Shown in pieces: positions 23,978-45,272 of a stretch of DNA of 64,000 nt. Made by a program: the position numbers and the translations under genes. The DNA comes from Pseudoclavibacter helvolus (GTDB lineage Bacteria > Actinomycetota > Actinomycetes > Actinomycetales > Microbacteriaceae): assembly GCF_014191305.1 (NCBI RefSeq), contig NZ_JACHWJ010000002.1, positions 248,001-312,000 of the forward strand. Direction: 5' to 3'. The first letter of the stretch is position 1. Each line of letters opens with the position of its first letter. The notes beneath the pieces are model-generated. The model was not told the origin of the DNA, searched no databases, and saw only the letters and a list, made by a program, of their open reading frames with translations.

Positions 23978-24262
23978 ATGTCTCGTAGAAGATTTACGCA
24001 GGAATTTAAGGACGAGCTCTGTCAGGAGGTGATCGCGTCGTCGAAACCGATCAAGGACGTTGCAGCGTCGTATGGTGTGGGCGCGGAGACTCTCCGGAAT
24101 TGGCTCGCGAAGTATCGGGCGGACAACCCGGTCACGGAACTCCCTGTGAGTGGATCGGAGCGAGAGCGACTCCGTGAGCTCGAGAAGGAAGTCCTGGAGC
24201 TACGGGCGGAGACCGCGTTCCTGAAAAAAGCTACGGCTTACTTCGCGCGGGAGCAGCGGTAG
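23978..24262 (+). CDS. IS3-family OrfA, copy 2
   Basis: The translation is identical to the 94-residue OrfA at 3691: N-terminal HTH and leucine-zipper-like tail. The A6G slippery sequence is at 24224-24230. The stop overlaps orfB by one base. Confidence 0.95.
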   Translation: MSRRRFTQEFKDELCQEVIASSKPIKDVAASYGVGAETLRNWLAKYRADNPVTELPVSGSERERLRELEKEVLELRAETAFLKKATAYFAREQR

Positions 24263-25146: not shown

Positions 25147-26778
25147 AAGTCATCGCATTCAGGCTGGGGACAGTCCGAAAACATCGCGGCAGACCACCCT
25201 CCGGGCGCAGCACGTAGCCGACCGGCTGGCCCACACAGTTCAGCGACTCCGGATTGATGACCCGCCACACCACGCCCCGCTTGCCGTCAGCCTCGCGCAC
25301 GCCCTCCAGCTCCGACCTCAACCGCGTCGTCGCCAACGTGAACCCGTTGCCGTACGGATTGCCCCCACCCATCGGCACCCGCTGCGCCGCCAGCTCCTCC
25401 ACCGAATTCTCGACACCGTCGACCGTCATATCCAGTCGCGCCGAGAACAGATGCTGGTGGTAGGGAGCCCCCACACCCGGGGCGATCTCCGACGCCCACG
25501 GATACTCGCCGCCATCCTCGAGCGGACCGGGGAACGCCGACGCGAACACCACCCCCGTCGCCTTGCACTCCAACTCGATGCGCCCGTCGAGGTACAGGTG
25601 CCAGTAGAAGCCGTAGTCGTAGTTGCCGACCGTGATGAAGAACGACACCACCAGGCGCCGGTTCCGCCGCACATCGCTCGAATGCGTGTACTCGTCGCTG
25701 TGCTTCCACAGGATCGACGCATCTTCCTCGTGCATGCAGATCGCGTTCCGGATGGTGCGCGGCCGGCCATCCGTCGCCGCGATCGTCGCGTCGAAGTAGC
25801 GGATCTCGCCCAGGCAGTCGCAGCCCAGCTCCAGCGAGTTCGCGACCTTGCCGAGCGAGTACTCGCCAGCATCGAAGTAGTTCTGCCAGAACCGCACCGG
25901 GCTCGGGTCGCCGTACGGCACCACCATCTCCGCGATCGACGCGCGGTACACGATCGGCCGAAGACGCCCGCCATCGGTGAAGCCGATCTCGTGCAGCGTC
26001 AGCCCCTCCACCTGGTTGTAGCCGATGCGGAAGCGCCACTTCTCCCACTCCACGACATCACCGTCGACCGCGAAGCTCGGCCCCTCCGGCTGCGTGATCA
26101 CGATCGGCTTCTGCGTCGTCCGGGCCGCCGGTCGCTCCGCCTTCAGGTGGTAGTTCTCGCGCCGCGCCGGCACCTCGAAGATGCGGTCGTCGATGAGCTC
26201 CAGCACCTCGCCCGAGATGAGATCCAGGTACGCGACCACCCCGTCCACCGGATGCGCCCACGCGTTGTCGTCAGGGTCCTGCTGCAGGAACGACAGGCAC
26301 CGCACGATGCGCCGCCCCTCCTCGCCGGGCAGGCCGAAGCGGCCCGCCGACAGCGCCGATATGCGCACCAGCGACACGTCCGTGATCCCACGGCGAGCCA
26401 TCGCCGCCACCCACCCCTCGTGCCTGCGAAGCAGCTCCTCGACCCGGTCGAACTCCTCATCGACGATAGGTGGCTGCCCCTCCCGCTCCACATCCACGAC
26501 GCGACTGCTCGCCACGCGCGGCGAGGTGAGCTCCGTCACCAGCTCCGTCACCGTGCCATCACGCCGATCGAGCAGCACGTTGCCGACCCGACGCTCGCGC
26601 ACCGTCCCGGCCAGCACCTCCGCCTTGTCCGGCTCGACGAGGTTCGTGAGCATGAAAGCCGTCGAGGCTTCGTCGTGACCGGCGGCGAGCACGAGCGTTC
26701 GGTTCAGGTCGATCTCCTCGGCACTGAGCCGGGCAAGCGGATGCGTCATGGTGGAGCCTTTCGCGGAGAGGGATGCGC

Positions 26779-28266: not shown

Positions 28267-29519
28267 GCGGACTGCTCCTCGGAGTTGGGCACTGACGCGG
28301 TGCTGGTGCTCGTGCTCGTGCTCGCACCGTCGATCGCTCGTGCGGGAAGGTGCGCGAGCGCGTCGTCGATGATGGTCTGCGCCATCAGGATCGCCCCGTC
28401 GAGCGCGGCGCGGTCTGCGGCCGGAGTCGCGGCCGCGGCGGCGAACGCCGCCTGGTGGTTGACGGCCGGCGCCGAGTCGATGCCCAGGTACGGGTGGATG
28501 GACCGGACGAGGCGAGAGACGTTGCCCATGTCGGTCGACGCCGTGTTCATACCCGCTGGCTTCTTCTCGGCCAGGTCCATGTCCCGGCCGAGCGCTGCCG
28601 CGTTCTCGGCGAAGGCGCCGAGCAGCGGTGCGTCGTTCCGGAACTCGGCGTAGCGCCCGCTCGTCTCCTCGAGTCGCATCGTGCATCCCGTCGCGAGGGC
28701 GCCAGCCTCGAAGCAGGCGGCGACGCGCGGGAACAGCGCGTCGAGCTGCTCGAGATCATCGGCGCGCACGTACCAGCTGCCGAGCGCCATCGCCGGGATC
28801 GCGTTCGGCGCCGTGCCGGCCTCGCGCACGATGCCGTGCACGCGCACCCCGTCCGGGAGCTGCTGGCGGAGCAGGCCGATCGCCGTCTGCGCGACGGTGA
28901 ACGCGTCGGCCGCGTTCACGCCGAGCTGCGGGTAGGCGGACGCATGCGACTCGACCCCCGTGTACTCGACGTCGAAGTGGGCGACGGCGCGCGGGCGGGC
29001 CCAGGCCGCGTCATCCGGCCCCGGATGCACCATCATCGCGAGGTCGACGCCCTCGAAGACGCCGCGCTCGAGCATGACGATCTTGCCCCCGCCGCCCTCC
29101 TCGGCCGGCGTGCCGATGACCCTCACGGTGAGGCCGAGCTCGTCGGCCACCGGGGCGAGCGCGATCGCCGCGCCCACGGCAGCCGCCGAGATGATGTTGT
29201 GCCCGCACGCGTGTCCGAGCCCGGCCAGGGCGTCGTACTCGGCGATGACCGCGGCCGTTCGCGGACCCGCGCCCGCCGTCGCGACGAACGCCGTCGGCAG
29301 CCCGGCGCTCCCGGTCTCGACCGTGAGGCCCGCCTCCTCGAGCGCCGCCACGATGAGCTCGGCGGAGCGATGCTCCCGCCACGCCACCTCGGGGGCGGCG
29401 TGCAGCGCGTGGCTGACGCCCAGGATGCGCGCGCTCGCCGCCTCGACCCGCGCGCGCACCTCGTCCTTGAGGGCGCCACCTGAATCGACGGCCCCCGGCG
29501 CGCGGCCCGCGGCGCTCAC
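28263..29519 (-). CDS. M20-family amidohydrolase (ACY1L2/AbgB-like)
   Basis: A 418-residue metal-dependent amidase. The start GTG 29519 overlaps the DUF1028 stop. The motifs GLGHACGHNIISAAAVGAA, GTPAEEGGGGKIVMLERG, MMVHPGPDD and TGVESHASAYPQLGVNA match the M20 ACY1L2/PM20D2 group, which cleaves N-acyl or dipeptide-like amides. The C-terminal 20 residues are a Ser/Thr repeat-like tail (STSTSTST), possibly a low-complexity extension. It is the fourth gene of the operon and may release an amine or amino acid for the downstream oxidase and dehydrogenase. Confidence 0.88.
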   Translation of the reverse strand: MSAAGRAPGAVDSGGALKDEVRARVEAASARILGVSHALHAAPEVAWREHRSAELIVAALEEAGLTVETGSAGLPTAFVATAGAGPRTAAVIAEYDALAGLGHACGHNIISAAAVGAAIALAPVADELGLTVRVIGTPAEEGGGGKIVMLERGVFEGVDLAMMVHPGPDDAAWARPRAVAHFDVEYTGVESHASAYPQLGVNAADAFTVAQTAIGLLRQQLPDGVRVHGIVREAGTAPNAIPAMALGSWYVRADDLEQLDALFPRVAACFEAGALATGCTMRLEETSGRYAEFRNDAPLLGAFAENAAALGRDMDLAEKKPAGMNTASTDMGNVSRLVRSIHPYLGIDSAPAVNHQAAFAAAAATPAADRAALDGAILMAQTIIDDALAHLPARAIDGASTSTSTSTASVPNSEEQSA

Positions 29520-30193
29520 TCGTCCGCCTCGTCGCCTGGCACCCCGTACGAGGGGGCCTCGTCTGGCCGGAGGGCCCGGCTCAGGTAGGCATCCTTCTGC
29601 GGCAGCCACAGCCGCACGAGCCGCTCGAGCTCGCCCACCGGGTCATCGTGGTCGTCGACGCGCAGGTCGGTGACGCGCCAGGAAGCCCCCTCGACGACCG
29701 CGAGGCCCGCCGAGCGCAGCTCGCCCGCCTCGCCACCGGCGTCTGCAGCCGCGCGCAGGCCGGCCATCAGCCGTTCCTCGAACGGCCCGTCCGCCGACTC
29801 GAAGCCGGCCACCATCGCGGCCAGCACGCCGTCGCCCGCGAGCAGGTTGCCGGCCGCCACGCACGAGTCGCCGACGTGCTCGCCGTGCACGCCGAGGGCC
29901 CGCGCACCGGAGCGCACCGCAACACTGCCGAGCGCATCCACCGCCGTCAGCTGGCGGAAGTCGGGGAACTCGTCGCCGGCGAGGGCGGCCTCGAGCGCCG
30001 CATCCGCTGTCGCCCCCGACTCGAGGGCGTCGAGCACCGCACCGCCGAGCGCCGGGTTGGTCACGTTCTGCGAGGCGGATGCGCCGACACCCGCCCGCAG
30101 GTGCACGCAGCGGGAGGCGACGGCCGGGCTCGAGGAGGAGATGATGATGCCGAGCGCACCATCGGACGACCTGGCCGTGAGCGAGAGCGTCAT
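29516..30193 (-). CDS. DUF1028 family protein
   Basis: A 225-residue protein. MTLSLTARSSDGALGIIISSSSPAVASRC followed by VGASASQNVTNPALGGAVLDALESG and GHCV-like HVGDSCVAAGNLLAG fits DUF1028, a family with a predicted Ntn-hydrolase-like fold. Its reaction is unknown. It overlaps RidA upstream and the M20 amidohydrolase downstream by 4 bp each, so it works in the same pathway. DUF1028 genes are frequently found next to RidA and amidohydrolase genes in catabolic operons, from general knowledge of the family. Confidence 0.8.
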   Translation of the reverse strand: MTLSLTARSSDGALGIIISSSSPAVASRCVHLRAGVGASASQNVTNPALGGAVLDALESGATADAALEAALAGDEFPDFRQLTAVDALGSVAVRSGARALGVHGEHVGDSCVAAGNLLAGDGVLAAMVAGFESADGPFEERLMAGLRAAADAGGEAGELRSAGLAVVEGASWRVTDLRVDDHDDPVGELERLVRLWLPQKDAYLSRALRPDEAPSYGVPGDEADE

Positions 30194-30637: not shown

Positions 30638-32002
30638 TCAGTGCTCCAGGGTCTCGAGGACATGGCTCGCGTGAGCCTGTCTGGTCGGAACGGGGTCGGG
30701 CTCGGTGTCGGCGCCAGGGGAGTAGGCGAGGTAGCTGCGCTGGATGGCGATGTGGTCGGCGAGGTGACCCGCATCGTGCCAGACGCCCCAGATGAAGCTC
30801 GAGCCGCGCCTCGACTGCCACGGCAGGCCGAGGAAGTAGATGCCGGGGGCCGCCGAGACGCCGCGCAGGTGCACGGGCTTGCCGCGCTCATCCACGGCCC
30901 CCTCCGGCAGCCACGAGTAGTCGGCCGAGTAGCCGGTGGCCCAGACGATGCTCGTGACGCCGGCCTCCTCGAGGTCGAGCTCCAGCAGCGGGTTGGTGAC
31001 GGAGTCGGGATCAGGGCCCAGGAGGTGCGCCTCCGGTTCCGGAGGGAGGTCGATGCCCGTTCGCTCCACGTAGGCGTCCGCCTCTGCGAGCAGCGCACGC
31101 AGGTTCGCGTCGCCTCTGGCGATGTTGTCGCCGAGGTCAGGCGCGAACCGCAGCAGCGTTCCGTCGGCCGACTCGGTGCGCCCCACGAGCGTGATGCCGG
31201 CCGCGGCGAGGCCGCGGAAATCGACCGTGTGCCCTCCGTCGGCGCCGCTCACGGCGATCGTCACGTGCTTCGCCCCCAGCGGCGGCGTCGACGCATCCCA
31301 CTTGTTCAGCACTCCGAGCCACCAGACGAAGTCGCGGCCACGGTAGCTGCGCGGGGGCCGCTCGTGCGGGCCGACCGAGAGGAAGACCTCGCGGCCGGCT
31401 CGCCGGAGCTCCGCGGCGATCTGCACGCCGGAGGAGCCGGCACCGACGACAAGCACCGCGCCGGGAGGCAGCTGCGCTGGGTTCCGGTAGTCGGCCGAGT
31501 GCAGCTGCGTGATCGCGTCGCTCTCCGGGACGATCGCCGGAACCACCGGCACCTGGAAGGCCCCGGTCGCCGCCACGACGGCGCCCGCCGAGATGCGCCC
31601 CGCCGACGTGTCGACGTCGAACTCCGGGGAACCGGGACGACGCCGCACCGCCGTCACCTCGACGCCCGTGCGCACCGGGCCGCAGAAGCGCTGCACGTAC
31701 TCCTCGAAGTAGTCGGCCACCTGATCCTTCGTGGCGAACCCGTCAGGAGCGAGGTTCGGGAACTCCAGGCTCGGGAACCGGTCATGCCAGGCCGGCCCGT
31801 TCGCGACGAGCGAGTCCCACCGGCCCGTGCGCCATCGCTCCGCGATTCGATCGCGCTCCAGGACCAGGTGGCTGATGCCCTTCCCGGCGAGGTGCTCGCT
31901 CATCGCGACGCCCGCCTGTCCTGCGCCGACGACGAGCACGTCGACGTGCTCGCGGGGGAGACGATCCTGATCCGTGTGGGGGTCGTGCGGGGAAGTTGGC
32001 AT
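30638..32002 (-). CDS. Flavin-containing monooxygenase (CzcO/FMO-like)
   Basis: A 454-residue flavoprotein. The first FAD Rossmann motif is VLVVGAGQAGVAMSEHL and the second (NADPH) is VLVVGAGSSGVQIAAEL. ERDRIAERWRTGRWDSL and the late motif IVWATGYSADYSWL are typical of bacterial FMOs of the CzcO type. Such enzymes oxygenate nitrogen or sulfur centres. It is the promoter-proximal gene of a six-gene operon ending in the amine oxidase. Its start at 32002 has GCAGG upstream. It should be under the divergent LysR regulator. Confidence 0.9.
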   Translation of the reverse strand: MPTSPHDPHTDQDRLPREHVDVLVVGAGQAGVAMSEHLAGKGISHLVLERDRIAERWRTGRWDSLVANGPAWHDRFPSLEFPNLAPDGFATKDQVADYFEEYVQRFCGPVRTGVEVTAVRRRPGSPEFDVDTSAGRISAGAVVAATGAFQVPVVPAIVPESDAITQLHSADYRNPAQLPPGAVLVVGAGSSGVQIAAELRRAGREVFLSVGPHERPPRSYRGRDFVWWLGVLNKWDASTPPLGAKHVTIAVSGADGGHTVDFRGLAAAGITLVGRTESADGTLLRFAPDLGDNIARGDANLRALLAEADAYVERTGIDLPPEPEAHLLGPDPDSVTNPLLELDLEEAGVTSIVWATGYSADYSWLPEGAVDERGKPVHLRGVSAAPGIYFLGLPWQSRRGSSFIWGVWHDAGHLADHIAIQRSYLAYSPGADTEPDPVPTRQAHASHVLETLEH

Positions 32003-34918: not shown

Positions 34919-35920
34919 ATGACCACCACCAAGAACGCACTCCGCACCGCGGGAGCCCTCGCTCTGAGTGCCGCGCTGCTGGCCACGACCGCATGCTCCG
35001 CCGACTCCGCAGCCTCCGCCGACGGGGAGGCCTCGACGATCGGCATGGGCATCCAGCCCTGGCTCGGCTACGGGCCCTGGTACATCGCCCAGGAGAACGG
35101 CTACTTCGAGGATGCCGGCGTCGACGTCGAGATCACCAACTTCACCAACGACGCGGACATGACCGCGGCGTTCGCCTCCGACCGCGTGCAGGTCGCTAAC
35201 GTCGCGAGCCAGACCGCGCTCCAGTTCATCGAACAGGGCCTCGACGTCAGCATCGTCCTGCTGCTCGACGCCTCCCTCACCGCCGACGCGATCCTCTCCG
35301 ACGGCAGCGTGACCGACATCGCCGACCTCAAGGGCAAGCAGATCGCCTTCGAGGAGGGCTCCGTGAGCAACCTCCTCCTCGGCTACGCGCTGCAGGAGAA
35401 CGGCCTCAGCCTCGACGACATCGAGCACGTCCCCATGGACCCATCCGAAGCGGCAACCGCCCTCATCGGCGGCAGCATCCCAGTGGCGGTCACCTACGAG
35501 CCCTACATCTCCGAAGCCCGCACCTCGAGCCCCGAGATCACCGAGATCTACACGGCGGCCGAGAACGCCGGCCTCATCAGCGACGTCCTCGTCGTCGACA
35601 ACACGTACCTCGAGGAGAACCGCGAGACCGTCCAGAGCGTCGTCGACGCCTGGGGCCCCGCCATCGACTTCTACGAGTCCGACACCGACGCCGCGAGGGC
35701 GATCATCGCCGAGAATCTCGGCAGCGACGTGGAAGCGCTCAACTCCGCCTTCGACGGCGTGCAGTTCTTCTCGCTCGAGCAGAACCAGACCGAGCTCGGC
35801 GGCAACTACCTGAACACCGTGCTCCCCAGCGTCGACAAGATCGCCGCCGAGATCGGCATCCTCGAAGGCGGCACCGACCTCCCGTCCATCGTCGACCTGA
35901 CGTTCGTCGGCGCAGAGTAA
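34919..35920 (+). CDS. ABC transporter substrate-binding lipoprotein (NMT1/SsuA-like)
   Basis: A 333-residue exported lipoprotein. The signal peptide ends in a lipobox-like LLATTAC about 24 residues in. IGMGIQPWLGYGPWYIAQENGYFEDAGVDVEI is the typical opening of the NMT1/taurine/sulfonate-binding fold, and AAFASDRVQVANVASQ and DLKGKQIAFEEGSVSNLL continue it. GAAGGACC lies upstream of the ATG. It would present its ligand to the permease and ATPase that follow. The ligand may be a sulfonate, an amino-sulfonate or a related small acid, judged from family only. Confidence 0.9.
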   Translation: MTTTKNALRTAGALALSAALLATTACSADSAASADGEASTIGMGIQPWLGYGPWYIAQENGYFEDAGVDVEITNFTNDADMTAAFASDRVQVANVASQTALQFIEQGLDVSIVLLLDASLTADAILSDGSVTDIADLKGKQIAFEEGSVSNLLLGYALQENGLSLDDIEHVPMDPSEAATALIGGSIPVAVTYEPYISEARTSSPEITEIYTAAENAGLISDVLVVDNTYLEENRETVQSVVDAWGPAIDFYESDTDAARAIIAENLGSDVEALNSAFDGVQFFSLEQNQTELGGNYLNTVLPSVDKIAAEIGILEGGTDLPSIVDLTFVGAE

Positions 35921-35940
35921 CCACAGGAGACCTGAGTCCC

Positions 35941-36780
35941 ATGGCAGTTCAGAGCACCACCCCGGTCGCGAGCACGCGGCCCGCGACCGGGGCGCGCCGG
36001 AAACCGGTCAGAGCGCCGCTGACCCGGCGCCAGTACCTCATCACGTCCGTCGTGACCTTCGTCCTCCTCCTCGCCGTGTGGACCGCGGTCTCCACGAGCG
36101 GCCTCGTCCGCCCGCTCTTCCTCCCATCGCCGATCTCCGTGGGCGAGAAGCTCATCGACCAGGCGGTAAACGGCCAGCTCTGGACCGACATCGCCGTGAG
36201 CACGTACCGCGTGATGGTCGGCTACCTGCTCGCCAGCGTCATCGCGATCCCCATCGGCGTGCTCTGCGGGTCGATCCCGAGGGTCGAAGCCGCGATCGAG
36301 CCGATCATGGACTTCATCCGCTACATGCCCGTCGTGGCCTTCGTGCCGCTCACGATCCTGTGGGTCGGCACCGACGACTCGCAGAAGGTGCTCATCATCT
36401 TCCTCGGCACCTTCTTCCAGCAGGTGCTCATGGTCGCCGACGCCGTGCGGCGCGTCCCGATGTCGTACCAGAACCTCGGCGCGACCCTCGGCCTGAGCCG
36501 CACGAAGATCCTCGTCCGCATCGTCTTCCCCTCCGCCCTCCCGCGGATCTGGGACGCGCTGCGCATCAGCCTCGGCTGGGCCTGGACCTGGCTCGTCGTC
36601 GCCGAGCTCGTCGCGGCCACCGAGGGCATGGGCTACCGCATCACCCAGGCGCAGCGCTTCCTCGAGACCGACCTCATCATCGGCTACGTCATCGTGCTCG
36701 GAGTGCTCGGACTCGTCTTCGACCAGGTCATGCGCGCGCTCGGCCGCCAGTTCTTCCGCTACCTGAAAGGACGTGTCTGA
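35941..36780 (+). CDS. ABC transporter permease (SsuC/TauC-like)
   Basis: A 279-residue inner-membrane protein with about six hydrophobic helices. The cytoplasmic EAA loop is in YQNLGATLGLSRTKILVRIVFPSALP. YMPVVAFVPLTILWVGTDDSQK is typical of nitrate/sulfonate/taurine importers. The gene starts 20 bp after the binding protein. Its stop overlaps the ATPase start (TGATG). Confidence 0.92.
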   Translation: MAVQSTTPVASTRPATGARRKPVRAPLTRRQYLITSVVTFVLLLAVWTAVSTSGLVRPLFLPSPISVGEKLIDQAVNGQLWTDIAVSTYRVMVGYLLASVIAIPIGVLCGSIPRVEAAIEPIMDFIRYMPVVAFVPLTILWVGTDDSQKVLIIFLGTFFQQVLMVADAVRRVPMSYQNLGATLGLSRTKILVRIVFPSALPRIWDALRISLGWAWTWLVVAELVAATEGMGYRITQAQRFLETDLIIGYVIVLGVLGLVFDQVMRALGRQFFRYLKGRV

Positions 36781-37550
36781 TGGCCGTCGAAACCGCACTC
36801 CGCGCACCCAAGGTCGTCGTCTCGGACGTCACGAAGCGCTTCGGCGAGGTGACGGCGCTCGCCGACGTCGACCTCGTGCTCGGCGACCGCGAGTTCGTCT
36901 CCGTGGTCGGGGCATCCGGTTGCGGCAAGAGCACGCTGCTCTCCGTCATCGCAGGCCTCGAGGCTCCGACCGCCGGCACCGCCTCGCTCAGCGGGCACGA
37001 GATCCTCGGCCCTGGTCGCGATCGCGGCGTCGTGTTCCAGCAGGCGACGCTCCTCCCGTGGCTCAGCGCCATCGACAACGTCGTGTTCGCGCTCGACGGC
37101 GAGGCCGATCTGACGAAGCGGCAGCGCATCGACCGGGCTCGGGATGTGCTCGACCAGGTCGGCCTCACCGGCTTCGAGTCGAAGTACCCTGCACAGCTGT
37201 CCGGCGGGATGCAGCAGCGCGTCGCGCTCGCCCGCTCGCTCGCCTACGGCCCGGACGTGCTCCTCATGGACGAGCCGTTCGGCGCCCTCGACGCGCTCAC
37301 GCGCCGGACCATGCAGGAACTCCTCACCGAGGTGTGGGAGCGCCACCGCATGACCGTCATGCTCATCACCCACGACATCGAGGAGGCGGTCTTCCTCTCG
37401 GACCGCGTCATCGCGATGACACCGCGCCCCGGGAAGGTCGCCGCCGAGTTCGAGATCGACCTGCCCCGGCCGCGCGAGGTCGACGTGCTGGGAAGCCCGG
37501 AGTTCCACGGCTACTACACGGAGATCCTCGACCTCATCCACCGCGGCTGA
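36780..37550 (+). CDS. ABC transporter ATP-binding protein (SsuB/TauB-like)
   Basis: A 256-residue ATPase. Walker A is GASGCGKST, the Q-loop region is GVVFQQATLLPWLSAIDN, the signature is LSGGMQQR and Walker B is VLLMDEPFGALDALTR. The PWL after the Q-loop is typical of the SsuB/TauB/NrtD group. It energises the permease at 35941. The enzyme genes that follow within 14 bp show that import and breakdown belong to one pathway. Confidence 0.94.
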   Translation: MAVETALRAPKVVVSDVTKRFGEVTALADVDLVLGDREFVSVVGASGCGKSTLLSVIAGLEAPTAGTASLSGHEILGPGRDRGVVFQQATLLPWLSAIDNVVFALDGEADLTKRQRIDRARDVLDQVGLTGFESKYPAQLSGGMQQRVALARSLAYGPDVLLMDEPFGALDALTRRTMQELLTEVWERHRMTVMLITHDIEEAVFLSDRVIAMTPRPGKVAAEFEIDLPRPREVDVLGSPEFHGYYTEILDLIHRG

Positions 37551-37563
37551 GACGGAGAAGCGC

Positions 37564-40125
37564 GTGAGCGAAGAATCGGAAGCCCAGTTCGACTACCTGG
37601 TGCTCGGCGGCGGCACCGCCGGATGCATCGTCGCGGCGAGGCTCAGCGAGCAGCCGGGAGTCTCGGTTTTGCTCGTCGAAGCCGGCCCCAGCGACGCCGA
37701 CGAGCCGAGAGCGGCGAGCATCCGCCGCTGGGACGAGATGCTCGAGGGGGAGTACGACCTCGACTACCGGAGCGAGCCGCAGGCACGTGGCAACTCGTTC
37801 ATCCGCCAGGCGCGCCTGCGCATCCTCGGCGGCTGCTCGACGGCGAACACGATGATCAGCTGGCGTCCGCTCCGCGGAGACCTCGACGAGTGGGCGTCCC
37901 TCGGCCTCGAGGGGTGGGGGTACGAGGAGGTCAGCCCCTGGTTCGACCGCATCGCGGCGACGATCACCCCGGTCGCCGCCCAAGACCAGAACCCGTACAT
38001 CCGTGACGCCGTGGACGCTGCGGCTGCCGCCCTCGAGGTCCCCAGGCGCGAGCGCTGGAACGACGTGGAGTTCATCGACGGGGCCGGATTTTTCGAGATC
38101 GGCTACGAGCCCTCCACGAACCAGCGCTCATCCGCCTCGTTCTCCTACCTGCACTCGCAGCCGGAACGGCCAGGCCTGACGATCCGCCTCGAGAGCATCG
38201 TCGAGCGGCTGCTCATCGAAGACGACCGCGCCGTGGGCGCCGTGCTCCGGAACCCCGACGGGACCTTCACGACGGTCCGGGCGCGACACGAGGTGGTCGT
38301 CAGCTGCGGCGCGATCGACACCCCGGCCCTGCTCATGCGCTCGGGCATCGGGCCGGCAGCCGTCCTCGAGGCCGCCGGGGTTCCCGTGCTCGTCGACGCG
38401 CCAGGCGTGGGGGAGAACCTCCAGGATCACGCGGAGGGGCTCGTCGTGTGGGAAGCGGCCGGGGAGCGCTCCGCGGTGTGCGCGACAGGGTGGGACGCGG
38501 GCTACGTCGTCAGCGTCGACCCCTCGACCAGCACCCCGGACATCTCGACCCACATCCCCCTGCACTCCTGGACCGTGCACGCGGAGCGAGTCGGCGCGCG
38601 GATCCCGACGAACAACGTGTCGCTCGCCCCCAACGTCGCGAAGCCGCGCAGTCGCGGCCGGGTGTGGATCACGTCCCCGGAACCCGACGCGCGACCATCC
38701 ATCGACTACGGCTCCTTCACCGACCCGGAGGGGCGGGATGAGCGGATGCTCGTCGAGGGCGTGCGCCTCGCCCGTCGCGTCGCCGCCGCCGAGCCGCTCG
38801 CCACGCACCTCGTGCGCGAGGTGTTCCCCGGCCCGGAGGTGCAGAGCGACGAGGCGCTCTCGGCCGTGCTGAGGGAGACGCATCAGACCGTCTACCACGT
38901 CTCCTGCACCGCCCGAATGGGTGCGGACGGCGACCAGATGGCCGTGCTCGACAGCCGGCTGCGCGTGCGCGGCGTCGAAGGGCTGCGCGTCGTCGACGCC
39001 TCCGTGTTCCCGACCATCACGGCACTCAACCCGGTCGGCATGATCATGACCATCGCCGAGCGCGCCGCGGCGTTCCTCCTCGAGGACCGGGCGCAGGAGT
39101 CCGCGCCCCCATCCGCGATCGCGTCCGCCAGCGATGACGCGGCGACCTTCCGGGCGCTGCTCCTCGACGAGGACCTCCGGCTCACCGTCGGTCACCGTCC
39201 CGCCGTCGCACCCGCACCTGGTGAGGTCGTCGTGGCCGTCGAACGCGCGGGGATCTGTGGCTCCGACCTGCACGTCCTGCGCAGCGGCGACTGGGTGAGC
39301 TACTGGCCGGCCACCCTCGGGCACGAGGTCGTCGGCCGCATCCTGCAGAGCAGCGACCCGGGCTGGCCCGTCGGCACGCGTGTGCTCATCGACAGCCGCA
39401 CGCCGCGAACCGACGACGGCAGGACCGTGCCGGCCGATCGACTCGACCCGAACCTCACCTGGCTCGGGGAGGAACGGCCGGGCGGATTCGCCGAGCGAGT
39501 CGTCGTCTCGACGGCGACGCTGCACGCCGTGCCCGACGCCCTCGATGCGCAGACCGCCGTGCTCGCCGAACCCCTCGCGGTCACCCTGTGCGCCTTCGAC
39601 CAGGCGCGCGTCGAGAGACCGGAAACGGTGCTGATCATCGGCCACGGACCGATCGGCTTCCTCGCCAACGCCGAGGTGCGCCGTCGGTGGCCCGAGGCGG
39701 CCGTCGACGTCATCGATCCCGTGCCCGAGCGGTCCGACCTCGCCCGCGAGCTCGGCGCACACGCCATCGCCCACATCGAGCGCGACGACTACGACCTCGT
39801 CATCGACGCCGCGGGATACGACGGGTCCCTGGCGGCTGCCGTGGCCGCCGCGGCCCGCGGCGGCAGCATCCTGCTCGTCGCGCTCGGCCACTCGCCGTCC
39901 CAGCTCATCCCGGCCGACGTCGTCGAACGGAGCCTCACGATCACCGGCAGCGTCGGCTTCGACACCAGACACCTCGACGAGGCGCTCCGCATCCTCGAGC
40001 AGTCACCCGACGTGTACCGGCGCTCGGTCACGCACACCATCCCGCTGCTCGAGCTCCCCGCCTTCCTCGCCTCACCGGCTCGCCGCGAAGCCATGAAGAT
40101 CCTCGTCGACTGCGGCGGCGCGTGA
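37564..40125 (+). CDS. GMC oxidoreductase fused to a medium-chain (MDR) dehydrogenase
   Basis: An 853-residue fusion. Residues about 8-508 are a GMC flavoenzyme: the FAD motif LVLGGGTAGCIVAARLSE, the ILGGCSTANTMISWRPL signature, GVGENLQDHAE, and the active-site histidine in YHVSCTARMGAD with PVGMIMTIAERAA. Residues about 530-853 are an MDR-type alcohol dehydrogenase: AGICGSDLHVLRSGDW and LGHEVVGRI hold zinc ligands, and VLIIGHGPIGFLANAEV is the nucleotide-binding motif. The four-cysteine structural zinc lobe is absent. The fusion has no frameshift at the join. It probably oxidises an alcohol in two ways or channels a product between sites. It starts 14 bp after the ATPase and overlaps the SDR gene (TGATG). 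Confidence 0.9.
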   Translation: MSEESEAQFDYLVLGGGTAGCIVAARLSEQPGVSVLLVEAGPSDADEPRAASIRRWDEMLEGEYDLDYRSEPQARGNSFIRQARLRILGGCSTANTMISWRPLRGDLDEWASLGLEGWGYEEVSPWFDRIAATITPVAAQDQNPYIRDAVDAAAAALEVPRRERWNDVEFIDGAGFFEIGYEPSTNQRSSASFSYLHSQPERPGLTIRLESIVERLLIEDDRAVGAVLRNPDGTFTTVRARHEVVVSCGAIDTPALLMRSGIGPAAVLEAAGVPVLVDAPGVGENLQDHAEGLVVWEAAGERSAVCATGWDAGYVVSVDPSTSTPDISTHIPLHSWTVHAERVGARIPTNNVSLAPNVAKPRSRGRVWITSPEPDARPSIDYGSFTDPEGRDERMLVEGVRLARRVAAAEPLATHLVREVFPGPEVQSDEALSAVLRETHQTVYHVSCTARMGADGDQMAVLDSRLRVRGVEGLRVVDASVFPTITALNPVGMIMTIAERAAAFLLEDRAQESAPPSAIASASDDAATFRALLLDEDLRLTVGHRPAVAPAPGEVVVAVERAGICGSDLHVLRSGDWVSYWPATLGHEVVGRILQSSDPGWPVGTRVLIDSRTPRTDDGRTVPADRLDPNLTWLGEERPGGFAERVVVSTATLHAVPDALDAQTAVLAEPLAVTLCAFDQARVERPETVLIIGHGPIGFLANAEVRRRWPEAAVDVIDPVPERSDLARELGAHAIAHIERDDYDLVIDAAGYDGSLAAAVAAAARGGSILLVALGHSPSQLIPADVVERSLTITGSVGFDTRHLDEALRILEQSPDVYRRSVTHTIPLLELPAFLASPARREAMKILVDCGGA

Positions 40126-40856
40126 TGGCGGCCGACGACGGCCGGGTGCTCATCACCGGCGGCACCTCGGGCATCGGACGCCACGTCGCCGGGCACCTCA
40201 CCGCATCCGGTGCGCGGGTCTGGATCACCGGCACACGTGAAGAGACGGTCGCCGCCGCCCTGCAGGCCGGCGTCGCCGAAGGCGCGACGGTGTGCGACGT
40301 GACGAGCCCCCAGCAGCTGGAAGGCGCGTTCCGGGATGCGGCAGACACGTTCGGCGGCCTCAGCGGGGTCTTCGCCAACGCCGGCATCGACGGCCAGGGC
40401 AAGCCGGCCGTCGACCTCGACATCGGCGAGATCACCCGCCTCTTCGACGTGAACGTCGGCGGCATCCTGCGGACCGCGCAGCTGGCGCACCGCCACCTCG
40501 ACCGCCCGGGTGCCCTCGTCGTCAACTCCTCCGTCAACGCCCTCCGCCCCGAGAGCGGGTTCGCCGACTACAACGCCTCCAAGGCGGCGGCAGCCTCCAT
40601 CGCCCAGTCGCTGGCCGTGGAATGGGCCGCCGAGGGCATCGCCGTCACCGGCATCTGCCCCGGCTACTTCCCCTCGAACATGACCCAGGGCTGGCTCGAC
40701 GACCCGGAGACCCGACAGCAGCTGCTCTCGCACATCCCCATGGGGCGCTTCGGTCGACCCGAGGAGATCGGGGCGACCGTCGCCTTCCTCCTCACCCCGC
40801 AGGCCCAGTTCCTCAGCGGAGCGCTGATCCCCATAGCCGGCGCCTCGAACGTCTGA
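40125..40856 (+). CDS. Short-chain dehydrogenase/reductase
   Basis: A 243-residue SDR. The NAD(P) motif is LITGGTSGIGRHVAG. FANAGIDGQG is the NAG motif, and SSVNALRPESGFADYNASKAAAASI carries the catalytic Ser, Tyr and Lys. It lies between the GMC-MDR fusion and the histidinol-dehydrogenase-like gene, with TGATG coupling to the former. An alcohol/ketone interconversion in the same pathway is likely. Confidence 0.92.
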   Translation: MAADDGRVLITGGTSGIGRHVAGHLTASGARVWITGTREETVAAALQAGVAEGATVCDVTSPQQLEGAFRDAADTFGGLSGVFANAGIDGQGKPAVDLDIGEITRLFDVNVGGILRTAQLAHRHLDRPGALVVNSSVNALRPESGFADYNASKAAAASIAQSLAVEWAAEGIAVTGICPGYFPSNMTQGWLDDPETRQQLLSHIPMGRFGRPEEIGATVAFLLTPQAQFLSGALIPIAGASNV

Positions 40857-40937
40857 CCGCCCCACCCCGAGACGACACCCTCCCACCACCGACCTCGTGC
40901 CGAGCGCATCGACGTCGAACAGAACCAGGAGCACGAC

Positions 40938-42290
40938 ATGACCATCGAACGACCCCTGCGCGACCGCGGCCCATGGAGTCAGCTCTCCGCCGACCAGAAA
41001 GCGGACCTCCTCGATCGCGGAGCCGCCCGCATCTTCGATCCGGCACTTCGCGACGGCGTGCTGAGCATCATCGAGGACGTCCGTGACCACGGCGACGAGG
41101 CACTGCTGCGAGCACTCAAGACCTTCGACGGCGTCGACATCACGGCCGACCAGATCCGCGTCAGCGACGAGGAGTTCGCCGAGGCGCGCAGACAGATCGC
41201 CCCCGAGCTCGTGACCGCGATCCGGGACCTCATCGCGCATCTTCGCGCCTTCAACGAGAACCTCGTCGGCGCCGGCAGCTGGGAGTTCGAGTCGGAACCA
41301 GGACTGCTCGTCGGCGAGAAGGTGAGCGCCATCGCGAGCGCCGGCCTGTTCGTGCCGAGCGGCAAGGGCTCGTACCCCTCCGTCATGGCGCAGCTCGGCA
41401 CGCCTGCCGTCGTCGCCGGCGTCAAGGAGCTCGCCGTCGTCGTCCCGCCCATCCCGGGCTCCGACGGGCAGGTCGACCCGGCCGTCCTCGTCGTCGCGGA
41501 CGAGCTCGGGATCCGCAACGTCTTCCGGGCGAACGGTCCGGCGGGCATCGCCGCGCTCGCGTTCGGCACCGAGACGATCCCGAAGGTCCGCAAGGTCTGC
41601 GGTCCCGGAAGCGCTCCGGTCGCGTGCGCGCAGATCGAGGTGCAGCGCTTCGGGACGGTCGGCGTCATGCTCCTGGGTCCGAGCGAGTCGCTCATCCTCG
41701 CGGATGCGGCGGCCGACCCGTACCTGATCGCGGCCGACCTGCTGACCGAGGCGGAGCACGGGCCCGACTCCACGAGCGTGCTCGTGACCGACAGCGCCGA
41801 CCTCATCGAGGCGGTGCAGCTCGAGCTCGTGACGCAGCTCGCCGACCTGCCAGACCAGCGCGCAGAGTACGCCCGCACGGCGCTCGGCGTGAACGGCGGG
41901 GCCGTGCTCACCCGCTCGCTCGAGGAATCCGCGGACGTCGCCAACGCCTTCGCTCCGGAGCACATGCAGATCGCGACGGCGCACCCGCGCGAGGTCCTCG
42001 AACTCATCGAGGACGCGGGGGAGGTCCTCCTCGGACAGGACACGACGATCTCCATGGCGAACTTCGTCATCGGCTGCCCCGCCGCGCTCCCGACGAGCGG
42101 CTACGCCAAGGTCTCCAGCGGCATCACGGTCGAGGCGTTCCAGAAGAAGACCGCCATCGCCCAGGCAGACACGACCGCGCTGCGACGCGTCGCGGACACC
42201 GTGGTGAGCTTCACGCAGCACGAGGGCTTCCCCGCCCACGAGGCGGCCGTGACCCGTCGCATCGCTCGGCTCGAGACGCAGCGCGCATGA
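40938..42290 (+). CDS. Histidinol-dehydrogenase-like enzyme (HisD paralogue, possibly HpsN-like)
   Basis: A 450-residue member of the histidinol dehydrogenase family. VPSGKGSYPSVMAQLGTPAVVAGV, CGPGSAPVACAQ and the catalytic EH in NAFAPEHMQIA are conserved. Compared with E. coli HisD, the zinc-ligand glutamine before AEHG is a glutamate (TEAEHGPDS), and the aspartate of GDYASG is an asparagine in ISMANFVIG. The nearby histidine is also missing. The PIS(M)ANF-like wording is typical of paralogues outside histidine synthesis. HpsN, the sulfopropanediol 3-dehydrogenase, is one. So a diol is probably oxidised in two steps to a 2-hydroxyacid. It is not likely to be hisD. Confidence 0.85.
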   Translation: MTIERPLRDRGPWSQLSADQKADLLDRGAARIFDPALRDGVLSIIEDVRDHGDEALLRALKTFDGVDITADQIRVSDEEFAEARRQIAPELVTAIRDLIAHLRAFNENLVGAGSWEFESEPGLLVGEKVSAIASAGLFVPSGKGSYPSVMAQLGTPAVVAGVKELAVVVPPIPGSDGQVDPAVLVVADELGIRNVFRANGPAGIAALAFGTETIPKVRKVCGPGSAPVACAQIEVQRFGTVGVMLLGPSESLILADAAADPYLIAADLLTEAEHGPDSTSVLVTDSADLIEAVQLELVTQLADLPDQRAEYARTALGVNGGAVLTRSLEESADVANAFAPEHMQIATAHPREVLELIEDAGEVLLGQDTTISMANFVIGCPAALPTSGYAKVSSGITVEAFQKKTAIAQADTTALRRVADTVVSFTQHEGFPAHEAAVTRRIARLETQRA

Positions 42291-42318
42291 TGGTGTCGGA
42301 ACCGACAGGCGGCGTCCG

Positions 42319-43593
42319 GTGAAGATCCGCGACGCGCTCTCGCTCATCGACCTGCGCCTGCCCTCCGGCGACCTGGCCGCGCGTCAGCTCGCCGCCTGCC
42401 ACAGCATCGAAGACCTCGAACGGCTCGCCAGGCGACGACTGCCCCGCTCCGTGCTCGACTACGTCAACGGCGGCGCCGATCATGAGTTGAGCCTCGCGCA
42501 GAACACGGACGCCATCCGCCGCTGGTCGTTCACGCCGCAGGTGCTGACGGACGTCGCGCAGACCTCGACGGCGACGAGCATCCTCGGGCACCCGGCGGCC
42601 GCCCCGTTCGGCTTCGCGCCCACCGGCTACACGCGGATGATCTCGCCCCTCGGGGAGAAGGCCGTCGCCGCGGCGGCCGGGCGCGCGGGCATCCCGTACG
42701 CCCTCTCGACGATGGCGACGACCTCCCTCGAAGACCTCGCCGCGCGCGACGCGGGTCGCACCGACCTCTGGTTCCAGCTCTACATCTGGCGGGACCGCCG
42801 CCTCACCCAGCAGCTCATCGCTCGGGCCAGCGACAGCGGCTACCGAGTGCTCGAAGTGGCCGTCGACACGGCCGTGTCGGGCCTGCGTCTCCGCGACGCG
42901 CGGAACGGATTCACGATCCCACCGAAGCTGACCCTCGCGAGCGTCCTCGACATCGGCACGAAGCCGAAGTACTGGACGGGCATGCTCCGCAGCCCCTCGA
43001 TGGAGTTCGCGAACGTCTCCGCCGCCGACGGACCAGACGGCGGGTACACGATCGAGAACATCACCAAGCAGTTCGACCCGTCGGTGCAGTGGTCCGATCT
43101 CGAGGACATCCGGTCGCGCTGGGACGGAAAGCTGGTCCTGAAGGGGCCGATCGGCCCGGCGGATGCGCTGCGCGCCGCTGACCTCGGCGTCGATGCGCTG
43201 CACCTCTCCAACCACGGAGGCCGGCAGCTCGACCGCTCGATCGCGCCGATCGACCTCGTCGCCCCTGTTCGTCAGGCGGTCGGCGACGACCTCGGAATCG
43301 TCGTGGACTCGGGCTTCCGGCACGGCGCGGACATCGCGACCGCCATAGCCCTCGGCGCGGACGCCGCATTCGTCGGGCGCCCATACCTGTGGGGCCTCGT
43401 CGCGGGCGGGCACGCGGGGCTGGACACCACTGCGCGTCTCTTCATGGACGGGCTGCGCCGCACCATGCAGCTGCTTGGCGTGCGTGACGTCGCTGAGCTC
43501 CGCCGCCGGGGCCCGGAGCTCCTGAGCACGCACGAGGCGAGAACAGGCCTGTTCTCGGACACGCCATACACATCAGTCGAGGAAACCCTATGA
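42319..43593 (+). CDS. FMN-dependent alpha-hydroxyacid dehydrogenase
   Basis: A 424-residue flavoenzyme of the glycolate oxidase/lactate dehydrogenase family. APTGYTRMISPLGE, FQLYIWRDRRLTQQL and VLEVAVDTAVSGLRLRD are typical. LSNHGGRQLDRS carries the catalytic His and Arg; VVDSGFRHGADIATAIALGA binds the FMN phosphate. It oxidises a 2-hydroxyacid to a 2-oxoacid. It follows the HisD-like gene by 28 bp and overlaps the TPP enzyme (ATGA). The start is GTG 42319. Confidence 0.93.
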   Translation: MKIRDALSLIDLRLPSGDLAARQLAACHSIEDLERLARRRLPRSVLDYVNGGADHELSLAQNTDAIRRWSFTPQVLTDVAQTSTATSILGHPAAAPFGFAPTGYTRMISPLGEKAVAAAAGRAGIPYALSTMATTSLEDLAARDAGRTDLWFQLYIWRDRRLTQQLIARASDSGYRVLEVAVDTAVSGLRLRDARNGFTIPPKLTLASVLDIGTKPKYWTGMLRSPSMEFANVSAADGPDGGYTIENITKQFDPSVQWSDLEDIRSRWDGKLVLKGPIGPADALRAADLGVDALHLSNHGGRQLDRSIAPIDLVAPVRQAVGDDLGIVVDSGFRHGADIATAIALGADAAFVGRPYLWGLVAGGHAGLDTTARLFMDGLRRTMQLLGVRDVAELRRRGPELLSTHEARTGLFSDTPYTSVEETL

Positions 43594-45272
43594 CCAGAAC
43601 GAGCACGGTCGCCGATGCTGTGGCGGACGTCGTCGCGGCCCACAGTCCCGTGGTGTTCAGCTTGGTGGGCAACGGCAACGCGCACTTCGTCGCGAGCCTG
43701 ACGAGCCGCGGCCACCGCGTCGTGAGCGTGCGCCATGAGACCGCGACGGTCATCGCCGCGCACAGCTACGCCCTGGCCGGCGGAGGCGTCGCCGCGGCCT
43801 CGGCGACCTACGGTGCCGGCTTCACGAACCTGCTGACCTCGCTCGCGGAAGCGCGTCTCGCCCGAGTGCCCGTCGTGGTGATCGTCGGCGGGGAGCCGAC
43901 GACCGGCTCCCGCGCCATCGACATCGACCAGATCGGGGTCGCAGCCGCGATGTACGTGCAGACGCTCACCGTCGGACGGGCGAACGCGACGGCGCAGACC
44001 GAGCTCGCCTATGCCATCGCGGCCAGGGACCGGGTGCCGGTGATCGTCACGATCCCGTACGACCTGGTGGACGCGTCAGTGGACACGTCAGTCGAGCCTG
44101 CGTCGCCGGTCGCCGCGCTCGAACAGGAGGCGGTGCTTCGGGCGCACGAGCTCGCGGAGGCCCCCGACATCGAGCGTGCGGACGCCACCCACGTCGCCGG
44201 ACTCCTCGCTCGCGCACAGCGACCGCTCATCCTCGCTGGCCACGGGGCGGTGCTGGCTGAAGCCGGCGACTCGCTGCGACGGGTCGGCGACAGGGTCGGT
44301 GCGCTCTTCGCGACCTCCCTCATGGCGCACGGCCTCACCGGGTCGCCATGGGACCTCGGCATCGCCGGCGGATTCTCGAGGCCAGACGTCGCCGAGCTCA
44401 TCGGCGAGGCCGACGTCGTGCTCGTCGTCGGCGCCAGCATGAACCTGTGGCAGATGCGCTACGAGACCCTGCTGACGCACGCCGAGACCATCATCCAGGT
44501 CGACACGCGCCCCGGCAGCACGCATCCGCGCGTCGACGAGTTCCACCGGGCGGATGCACGCGCCTTCGCGGAGGCGCTGCTCGCGGAGCTCACCGACGCC
44601 GACCGCGACGGGTGGCGCGGGTCTGTGACCATGCCCGGCGCGGACTCGCGGCCCTTCGAGGAGGTCGCCCCGGACGGACGGCTCGATCCCCAGGCCGTGA
44701 TCACCGAGCTCGAGGCTATCCTGCCGCTCGAGCGGAGCATCACCCAGGACAACGGGCACTTCATGGGCTGGGCGCCGCGTCACCTCAGCGCCCCGGACCC
44801 GCACGCCATGCTGCTGCCAGGGCTCGCGCTGCACTGCATCGGCCTGGGCGTTGGGTCGCTGCTCGGTGTCGCGGCCGCCCGCCCCGACCGACTCCCGGTG
44901 CTCGTGACGGGGGACGGGGGATTCCTGATGGAGTTGAGCGAGCTCGACACGCTGCTCCGCGAGGTCCCGTCGGCGCTCGTCGTCGTCATGAACGATGCGG
45001 CCTTCGGCATGGAGGTGCACCAGTACGGCGTGCGCGGCCTCGACACCGACGCCATGACCTTCGCCGAGGTGGACTTCGCGGCGCTCGCGGTGGCCATGGG
45101 CGGGCGCGGGGCGAAGATCACGGCGCTCTCCGACCTGGACCGGGTGCAGGAGTGGCTCGACCGTGGGGCTGAGGGGATCTTCGTCGCCGACGTGGCGATC
45201 TCCCCGAACGTCGTCGCTGACTGGCTGCGGCTGAGCAATCGCTACAACGGGGTCGTGGAGGTGTCCGCCTGA
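43590..45272 (+). CDS. Thiamine-diphosphate-dependent enzyme (2-oxoacid decarboxylase-like)
   Basis: A 560-residue protein with the three domains of the acetolactate synthase/benzoylformate decarboxylase family. The activating glutamate is in VVSVRHETATVIAAHSYAL. The ThDP-binding motif is VLVTGDGGFLMELSELDTLL...NDAAFGM. No FAD-type AHAS signature stands out. It is the last gene of the operon, directly after a 2-hydroxyacid dehydrogenase, so decarboxylation of the 2-oxoacid formed there is the simplest role. Sulfopyruvate decarboxylation is one possibility. Confidence 0.88.
   Translation: MTRTSTVADAVADVVAAHSPVVFSLVGNGNAHFVASLTSRGHRVVSVRHETATVIAAHSYALAGGGVAAASATYGAGFTNLLTSLAEARLARVPVVVIVGGEPTTGSRAIDIDQIGVAAAMYVQTLTVGRANATAQTELAYAIAARDRVPVIVTIPYDLVDASVDTSVEPASPVAALEQEAVLRAHELAEAPDIERADATHVAGLLARAQRPLILAGHGAVLAEAGDSLRRVGDRVGALFATSLMAHGLTGSPWDLGIAGGFSRPDVAELIGEADVVLVVGASMNLWQMRYETLLTHAETIIQVDTRPGSTHPRVDEFHRADARAFAEALLAELTDADRDGWRGSVTMPGADSRPFEEVAPDGRLDPQAVITELEAILPLERSITQDNGHFMGWAPRHLSAPDPHAMLLPGLALHCIGLGVGSLLGVAAARPDRLPVLVTGDGGFLMELSELDTLLREVPSALVVVMNDAAFGMEVHQYGVRGLDTDAMTFAEVDFAALAVAMGGRGAKITALSDLDRVQEWLDRGAEGIFVADVAISPNVVADWLRLSNRYNGVVEVSA

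What the first reader, a model, noticed from the sequence alone, without database searches (positions are those of the whole stretch)
34919..45272. Candidate new pathway: diol import, two-step oxidation, then decarboxylation
Gene order reads as importer, GMC-MDR and SDR (alcohol/ketone steps or epimerisation), HisD-like (diol end to acid), FMN enzyme (2-hydroxyacid to 2-oxoacid), TPP enzyme (decarboxylation to aldehyde). With an SsuA-like binding protein, 2,3-dihydroxypropane-1-sulfonate is a good guess: HpsN-type oxidation to sulfolactate, then sulfopyruvate, then sulfoacetaldehyde. No suyAB or xsc gene is in the window, so the aldehyde would be used or exported elsewhere.
Basis: inference. 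Interest (0 to 1): 0.7.

Follow-up and report, generated by a model that had tools for sequence, protein, structure and literature searches.

The report
Imidazole side-chain breakdown gene island
These genes do form an operon, but relatives of the same genes sit with histidine- and histamine-degradation genes rather than sulfonate genes, so the operon most likely breaks down histidine-like (imidazole) compounds by a little-described side route.

Summary
The sulfonate reading fails its key tests: the HisD-like protein lacks the HpsN motif and two of four zinc ligands are exchanged; Xsc and sulfopyruvate decarboxylase models stay far under cut-off in the genome.

Genome G355 has the same island. 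Other MDR-SDR-HisD-FMN clusters sit with HutH, HutU and HisC-like genes.

Best model: an imported imidazole compound is oxidised by MDR, SDR, HisD and the FMN enzyme to imidazolepyruvate; the TPP enzyme makes imidazoleacetaldehyde for ALDH and HinFLHG. In mycobacterial clusters HisC and HutH would take over. Every individual substrate is inferred. The hin core is known and was predicted in Brevibacterium; the HisD/FMN/TPP branch was not found in the papers searched.

The parts
23520..26788 (-). Copper amine oxidase gene (histamine/phenethylamine oxidase type), interrupted by an IS3-type element (transposase 24262-25146 +)
   Evidence: PF01179 on the longer piece; best PDB matches phenylethylamine oxidase, 545 bits, match stops at residue 516 of 638; an unbroken Arthrobacter relative matches at 26752-25196 and 23906-23520
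26779..28266 (-). Aldehyde dehydrogenase (HinD-like position)
   Evidence: PF00171 545 bits; 49% to the ALDH beside the hin block on an Arthrobacter plasmid; 71-76% in L123, L124, L193
28263..29483 (-). M20 amidohydrolase (HinG-like position; start codon uncertain)
   Evidence: TIGR01891 194 bits, cut-off 154; 53% to L144 M20
29516..30193 (-). DUF1028 protein (HinH-like position)
   Evidence: PF06267 193 bits; 50% to L144
30190..30636 (-). RidA-type enamine deaminase (HinL-like position)
   Evidence: PF01042; 84% to L144 RidA
30638..32002 (-). FAD-dependent monooxygenase (HinF-like)
   Evidence: FMO-like/Pyr_redox_3 domains; 69% to L144
32156..33097 (+). LysR regulator (HinK-like position)
   Evidence: PF00126/PF03466; 54-68% in L123, L124, L193
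33082..34710 (-). YtcJ-like amidohydrolase, role unknown, part of the hin island in G355, G187 and G134
   Evidence: PF07969 268 bits; 60-65% in L193-L195
34919..35920 (+). NMT1/SsuA-type lipoprotein binding protein
   Evidence: orthologues 67-69% in L193-L195
35941..36780 (+). ABC permease
   Evidence: 74-78% in L186, L194, L195
36780..37550 (+). ABC ATPase
   Evidence: 76-79% in L186, L194, L195
37564..40125 (+). GMC oxidoreductase (choline-oxidase-like) fused in frame to a zinc MDR dehydrogenase
   Evidence: both halves complete; GMC and MDR are separate genes in L040 and L186
40125..40856 (+). SDR dehydrogenase
40938..42290 (+). HisD-type dehydrogenase of the E/N subtype
   Evidence: TIGR00069 381 bits, cut-off 244
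42319..43593 (+). FMN-dependent 2-hydroxyacid oxidase/dehydrogenase
   Evidence: PF01070; nearest solved structures lactate oxidase (255 bits) and mandelate dehydrogenase (251)
43590..45272 (+). TPP-dependent enzyme, proposed imidazolepyruvate decarboxylase
   Evidence: PF02775/02776/00205; no NCBIfam model over cut-off among the 25 shown; 69-73% orthologues in L123, L124, L125, L186

Best explanation
The operon is the oxidising arm of an actinobacterial island that degrades histidine-related imidazole compounds. An SsuA/NMT1-type ABC importer brings in an imidazole compound. MDR and SDR dehydrogenases adjust a secondary alcohol. The HisD-type enzyme oxidises the primary alcohol end (of an imidazolyl-propanediol, or of histidinol) to an acid. 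The FMN enzyme turns the 2-hydroxyacid (imidazolelactate) into imidazolepyruvate. The TPP enzyme decarboxylates that to imidazoleacetaldehyde. The GMC half, a choline-oxidase relative, plausibly makes the same aldehyde from imidazole-ethanol. ALDH gives imidazoleacetate, which the HinF-HinL-HinH-HinG-like block takes to aspartate. In mycobacterial and other clusters without the TPP gene, a HisC-like aminotransferase and HutH/HutU would take imidazolepyruvate through histidine and urocanate. Shown: gene content, conserved neighbourhoods, HisD subtype, failed HpsN tests. Inferred: the imidazole ring (from context) and every individual substrate.
For: FMO-RidA-DUF1028-M20-ALDH-amine oxidase beside the operon has the order and enzyme kinds of hinFLHG, hinD and histamine oxidase, and the block recurs on Arthrobacter, Burkholderia and Streptomyces plasmids. 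G355 carries the whole island from TPP to amine oxidase in the same arrangement (L186, L193); the Cryobacterium MAG L040 and G116 also have hin genes 3.5 and 9 kb from HisD. In the window's family HisD-like and FMO co-occur: 4 of 7 against 35 of 390 genomes, own genome left out. Other HisD-module clusters carry HutH, HutU and HisC-like genes (L033-L039, L047, L184). Of 20 distinct HisD+FMN loci, 3 have TPP, 12 have HisC or HutH, none both. TPP and GMC also lie in the hin operon of G072 and G116 (L123, L124).
Against: No substrate was measured. The Pseudomonas Hin sequences were not at hand, so the hin assignment rests on order, domains and relatives. The window's amine oxidase is interrupted, so histamine itself may no longer be an entry. 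Seven of 20 long loci of the HisD clade show none of the 13 genes looked for, and 3 of 8 HisD genomes of the family lack the FMO while 35 FMO genomes lack HisD. L040 has HisC/HutH and hin genes together, without TPP in the stretch seen. HisC-like genes are no more frequent than near canonical HisD (9 of 20 against 15 of 19). Aspartase is not in the cluster and the genome's best match is under its cut-off (610 of 681).
Confidence: 0.65

Rival explanations
1. The HisD-like enzyme simply makes histidine from histidinol, which the genome's own HutH and HutU then degrade; the FMN and TPP enzymes serve imidazolelactate or other 2-hydroxyacids independently.
For: The protein passes the HisD model and keeps the catalytic Glu-His pair. 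Some members of its wider E/N clade lie near histidine-biosynthesis genes (L081, L063). The genome has HutH (612, cut-off 539) and HutU (915, cut-off 375) elsewhere.
Against: MDR, SDR and FMN genes would then be unexplained companions, yet FMN is present in 13 of 20 long loci of this clade and in 0 of 19 canonical ones; the window has neither HisC nor HutH beside the module.
Confidence: 0.2
2. The module degrades another aryl or heteroaryl side chain (phenyl, indole, pyridine) by the same chemistry, and the hin and hut neighbours are chance or were brought together by mobile elements.
For: The FMN enzyme resembles mandelate dehydrogenase among solved structures; the ALDH also matches phenylacetaldehyde dehydrogenase models, under cut-off; an IS3 transposase lies in the island.
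Confidence: 0.1
3. One reading: HpsN-type oxidation to sulfolactate, FMN enzyme to sulfopyruvate, TPP enzyme to sulfoacetaldehyde.
For: Same set of enzyme classes as the HpsN-motif cluster L149, which also has an alpha-hydroxyacid oxidase; SsuA-like importer; '(R)-DHPS dehydrogenase' and sulfopropanediol dehydrogenase are among the 11 PDB matches (172 and 145 bits; E. coli HisD 234).
Against: HpsN motif and two zinc ligands not met; window MDR, SDR and FMN proteins are only 31, 26 and 34% identical to those of L149; no Xsc or sulfopyruvate decarboxylase alpha over cut-off in the genome; hin and hut context instead.
Confidence: 0.03

Closest known systems
Histamine/imidazoleacetate (hin) pathway of Pseudomonas, predicted also in Brevibacterium
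   Same: FMO, RidA, amidases, ALDH, LysR; order FMO-RidA-DUF1028-M20 as hinFLHG
   Different: Joined to an ABC importer, GMC oxidase, HisD module and TPP enzyme; aspartase not in the cluster; amine oxidase interrupted
HpsNOP dihydroxypropanesulfonate pathway
   Same: SDR + MDR + HisD-type dehydrogenase (SDR HpsO, MDR HpsP, PMC11131964 passages); 2-hydroxyacid and TPP steps in the L149 cluster
   Different: HpsN motif absent, zinc ligands exchanged, no sulfonate genes detected among those tested
Histidine utilisation (hut) with a histidinol dehydrogenase paralogue
   Same: Orthologous HisD module beside HutH, HutU and HisC-like genes in other actinobacteria
   Different: The window's island has hin genes and a TPP enzyme instead; hut genes are elsewhere in the genome
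Choline oxidase (GMC family)
   Same: Best solved-structure match, 382 bits; residues aligned with His310, Glu312, His351, His466 and Asn510 kept (alignment; numbering and roles recalled)
   Different: The flavin-linking His99 position is Ala; fused to an MDR dehydrogenase; hin context

Membership tests
HpsN (DHPS 3-dehydrogenase) | G-R-Y-A/S-H motif with the sulfonate-recognising His126 | tested here: not met
   Window G-K-G-S-Y; control L149 G-R-Y-S-H
HpsN (DHPS 3-dehydrogenase) | Zinc ligands Gln248 and Asp352 | tested here: not met
   Glu and Asn in the window protein
DHPS pathway | A sulfonate-cleaving or sulfopyruvate-decarboxylating enzyme in the genome | tested here: inconclusive
   Xsc best 306 of 676 bits; sulfopyruvate decarboxylase alpha 23 of 148; SuyAB not tested; genome 97.2% complete
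HisD family | Passes the curated histidinol dehydrogenase model | tested here: met
   TIGR00069 381 bits, cut-off 244
HisD family | Catalytic Glu-His pair and canonical zinc ligands Gln, His, Asp, His | tested here: not met
   Glu-His pair and both zinc His kept, but Gln and Asp are Glu and Asn; 59 of 87 aligned sequences share this E/N pair, some near histidine-biosynthesis genes
hin pathway (imidazoleacetate to aspartate) | FMO, RidA, HinH-type amidase and M20 amidase in the order hinFLHG | tested here: met
   Order and domains; HinH = DUF1028 is inferred from position, and Pseudomonas sequences were not compared
hin pathway | Histamine-to-aldehyde enzyme (HinC or histamine oxidase) | tested here: inconclusive
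   Copper amine oxidase gene present but interrupted by an IS element; HinC not searched
hin pathway | Aspartase HinI | tested here: inconclusive
   No match in the window to the L144 aspartase; best genome match 610 bits, cut-off 681
Imidazolepyruvate decarboxylase activity of the TPP enzyme | Activity on imidazolepyruvate | not testable with these tools
   Needs an enzyme assay

The most novel reading that the evidence does not exclude
An undescribed actinobacterial route in which a HisD-type enzyme works in catabolism: imidazolyl-propanediol (or an imidazoleglycerol-derived diol), histidinol and imidazolelactate are oxidised to imidazolepyruvate, which branches either to histidine and urocanate (HisC-HutH-HutU) or, through a new TPP imidazolepyruvate decarboxylase, to imidazoleacetaldehyde and the hin pathway, with a choline-oxidase-like histaminol oxidase as a further entry.
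Probability: 0.35. Interest if true: 0.65.

Novelty: new variant of a known kind. Interest (0 to 1): 0.5.

Why it matters
If true, HisD-type enzymes have a catabolic clade in actinobacteria; SsuA-like importers with HisD-like genes beside them should not be annotated as sulfonate genes by resemblance; and histidine-derived imidazoles have extra entry routes with testable enzymes (an imidazolepyruvate decarboxylase, a histaminol oxidase). It also offers a residue test (HpsN motif; E/N against Q/D) for sorting HisD-like genes.

Tried and rejected
DHPS reading: tested by motif, zinc ligands, structure ranking and genome search and set aside. SsuA resemblance as evidence for sulfonates: rejected, since such importers also sit with hut genes (L047, L058, L061, L184) and hin genes. 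The E/N exchange as proof of a new substrate: rejected, since E/N HisD also occurs near histidine-biosynthesis genes. GMC-MDR fusion as a designed bifunctional enzyme: weakened, since in G355 the two genes are separated by an IclR and a kinase-like gene, so loss of these is a simpler origin. The unknown 419-aa neighbour protein: model too poor to use (mean pLDDT 41.5), no fold search made. TPP relatives at 42-47% identity: 27 were seen with about 1.5 kb flanks and five of them at 19-20 kb (L126-L130); those five showed no HisD, FMN or FMO match (two had an ALDH match of 42-43%); not pursued.

Literature: searches, of the held open-access library only. No description of the HisD/FMN/TPP branch was seen in the listings; six papers were read in passages found by term, none in full. 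Recalled, from no call: early work on histidinol use by Arthrobacter histidinolovorans and on imidazolyl-lactate use by Pseudomonas testosteroni; choline oxidase residue numbers and roles; E. coli HisD residue numbers.
Full report
What is there. The window is C2:248001-312000 of a 3.84 Mb, 12-contig genome. A second, better-scoring HisD (457 against 391 bits) lies on C1, so the window gene is a paralogue.

What the finding did not use. Upstream lie, on the minus strand, a YtcJ-like amidohydrolase and then FMO, RidA, DUF1028, M20 and ALDH, followed by a copper amine oxidase interrupted by an IS3-type element (residues 10-524 of an unbroken relative match 26752-25196, residues 523-645 match 23906-23520; transposase 24262-25146). 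A LysR gene sits between the FMO and the amidohydrolase. In P. aeruginosa HinFLHG convert imidazoleacetate to aspartate under the LysR regulator HinK; hinG (PA5390) is listed as a 'probable peptidic bond hydrolase', hinH, hinL and hinF as hypothetical (PMC8231116, passages). A Brevibacterium paper lists P. putida HinF as FAD-monooxygenase EC 1.14.13.5, HinL as enamine deaminase, HinG and HinH as amidases, HinD as aldehyde dehydrogenase, HinI as aspartase, and proposes that a histamine oxidase could stand in for HinC (PMC6467879, passages). The FMO-RidA-DUF1028-M20 block occurs on an Arthrobacter plasmid with amine oxidase, ALDH and aspartase, on a Burkholderia plasmid and on a Streptomyces plasmid with aspartase. 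The window proteins are 69, 84, 50, 53 and 49% identical to the Arthrobacter FMO, RidA, DUF1028, M20 and ALDH; the Arthrobacter aspartase has no match in the window. I did not have the Pseudomonas sequences, so the hin assignment rests on order, domains and these relatives.

The HisD-like protein is not HpsN. The structure paper on HpsN gives as its hallmark G-R-Y-A/S-H, with zinc bound through Gln248, His251, Asp352 and His411 (PMC11382572, passages). The window protein reads G-K-G-S-Y, with Glu and Asn at the Gln and Asp positions; the catalytic Glu-His pair and both zinc histidines are kept. As a control, the HisD-like protein of a plasmid cluster annotated with sulfopyruvate decarboxylase (L149) reads G-R-Y-S-H with Gln and Asp and is 29% identical to the window protein. 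Of 87 HisD sequences aligned, 59 have the E/N pair (30 FENA, 23 YENA, 5 FENH, 1 FENN), 27 have Q/D and 1 is truncated; the 59 and the truncated one form a clade of 60 (support 0.995). The 28 sequences of at least 55% identity, window included, form a subclade with support 1.0. Some E/N members lie near histidine-biosynthesis genes (L081 with HisB at 315 bits, cut-off 278; L063 with HisG at 182, cut-off 76), so the exchange alone does not mean a new substrate. Among 11 solved-structure matches the window protein scores 234 bits to E. coli HisD, 172 to an (R)-DHPS dehydrogenase and 145 to HpsN. In the genome the Xsc model reaches 306 of 676 bits (it reaches no cut-off in the 14 control genomes either) and the sulfopyruvate decarboxylase alpha model 23 of 148.

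Neighbours elsewhere. The genome-contig scan with the HisD-like protein kept the best 80 of 385 related loci. In L033-L039 (three Mycolicibacterium, a Mycobacterium, a Nocardia, an actinobacterial MAG, a Streptomyces) the gene lies with MDR, SDR, an NCS1 permease, the FMN gene, HutH and a HisC-like aminotransferase, and in L034, L035, L036 and L038 also HutU. HutH (639, cut-off 539) and HutU (910, cut-off 375) of L034 pass their cut-offs; the HisC-like gene is just under (367 of 374). A Cryobacterium MAG (L040) has the HisD module together with FMO, RidA, DUF1028, M20, ALDH, GMC and the importer. Taking loci of at least 10 kb (20 of 29 in the actinobacterial clade, window included; 19 of 23 canonical ones): FMN 13 of 20 against 0 of 19, MDR 12 against 0, SDR 12 against 0, HutH 8 against 0, HutU 5 against 0, NCS1 7 against 0, but HisC 9 of 20 against 15 of 19. 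Seven of the 20 (L044, L045, L048, L051, L056, L057, L082) carry none of the 13 genes looked for. Among 28 long loci of the other E/N group, two Terrilactibacillus loci (L058, L061) have HisD, SsuA-like importer, SDR, HAL and HutU, with HutI and HutP over their cut-offs in L061.

Within the window's family, 8 of 398 genomes have the HisD-like gene at E <= 1e-110 and 40 of 398 have the FMO at E <= 1e-130. Own genome left out, the FMO is in 4 of 7 genomes with HisD and in 35 of 390 without (Fisher p 0.0023; relatedness not corrected for). G355 has the window's island from TPP to amine oxidase in the same arrangement, except that an IclR gene and a 419-aa-type gene lie between GMC and MDR (L186, L193). 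G116 has HisD 9 kb from the FMO. G046 and G071 instead have HutU, HutH and HisC-like genes beside HisD (L183, L184). G072 and G134 have the FMO on another contig. G064 has HisD without these companions in 20 kb (L185). G187 (L194) and the second G134 locus (L195) show the hin island with importer, amidohydrolase, amine oxidase and GMC but no HisD module beside it, so importer and GMC seem to belong to the hin side. In the class sample 8 of 394 genomes have the HisD-like gene.

How it probably works. One search lists loci with HisD (>= 400 bits) and FMN (>= 150 bits). Of the 20 left, TPP is in 3 (window, L125, L186), HisC or HutH (>= 100 bits) in 12 (L033-L040, L042, L047, L184, L189), both in none, neither in 5 (L041, L181, L182, L190, L192; of these G116 and G072 have the TPP gene in their hin operon). 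This is what alternative outlets of one oxoacid would look like: transamination to histidine, then HutH/HutU; or decarboxylation to imidazoleacetaldehyde, then ALDH and HinFLHG. Absence in short stretches is weak evidence. With no HisC/HutH beside it, the window line makes most sense if HisD yields a 2-hydroxyacid, that is, acts on a diol, with MDR and SDR interconverting its secondary alcohol; histidinol remains possible, and HutH and HutU exist elsewhere in the genome. The GMC half is closest to choline oxidase (382 bits); choline and imidazole-ethanol are both 2-substituted ethanols that can carry a positive charge, which is my inference only. Histidinol and imidazolelactate are both listed in bean root exudates (PMC4192682, table passages), so such substrates can occur in soil.

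Fusion. The 853-aa ORF contains GMC (9-505 aligned to a separate 556-aa ORF in L186) and MDR (517-850 aligned to a 337-aa ORF in L033), both complete. Given the G355 layout, loss of the intervening genes is the simplest origin; an assembly fault was not excluded.

Verdict. Known families in a combination I did not find described (searches, of the held open-access library only). The hin genes were stated to be absent from Gram-positive bacteria sequenced by 2018 (as reported), but homologues were listed in Brevibacterium in 2019. New variant of a known kind, not sulfonate metabolism.

Noticed in passing
window 23520-26788 and 24262-25146: A copper amine oxidase gene is interrupted by an IS3-type element; an uninterrupted-looking copy of the same gene lies in the hin islands of G355, G187 and G134.
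   Followed up: partly
window 37564-40125: GMC and MDR genes fused in one ORF; in the six relatives compared that matched either half, they are not fused.
   Followed up: yes
L040, L041, L042, L043, L125, L181, L182, L184, L186, L189, L190, L191, L192: A roughly 419-aa protein without Pfam or NCBIfam match (L042 copy tested) sits beside the HisD-like gene; by eye it has an HGDDHHGN...FDPAF stretch like aminoglycoside-phosphotransferase/choline-kinase folds. It is absent from the window. Similar genes score over 80 bits in 4 of 28 other E/N HisD loci.
   Followed up: partly
L065, L067, L070, L072, L086: E/N-type HisD genes lie next to a short HisB-like gene, well under HisB cut-offs in the two tested (L065 99 of 189 bits, L086 95 of 231), and in L067, L070 and L072 a HAD-like gene by eye: perhaps a separate imidazole pathway.
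   Followed up: no
G000 C6:43669-53585 (L114, L132, L135): The window's genome has a second urocanase (582 bits) and a second HAL-like gene (287 bits, under cut-off) 7 kb apart, perhaps for a histidine derivative such as ergothioneine.
   Followed up: no
   Followed up: partly
window 14220-17324: ORFs that look by eye like transposases of two IS families; together with the IS3 element they lie on the left side of the island.
   Followed up: no
window 18955-20445: An amino-acid permease (PF13520) between these mobile elements and the hin block; may be the uptake gene of the island.
   Followed up: no
window 45990-47087: Pyridoxal-phosphate enzyme just under the cut-off for L-cysteine desulfhydrase Cds1 (589 of 600 bits).
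   Followed up: no
L058 15245-16872: An AcnX-type dehydratase gene pair by eye (large part matches cis-3-hydroxyproline dehydratase, 225 of 700 bits) lies between the HisD/importer genes and the hut genes of Terrilactibacillus.
   Followed up: no
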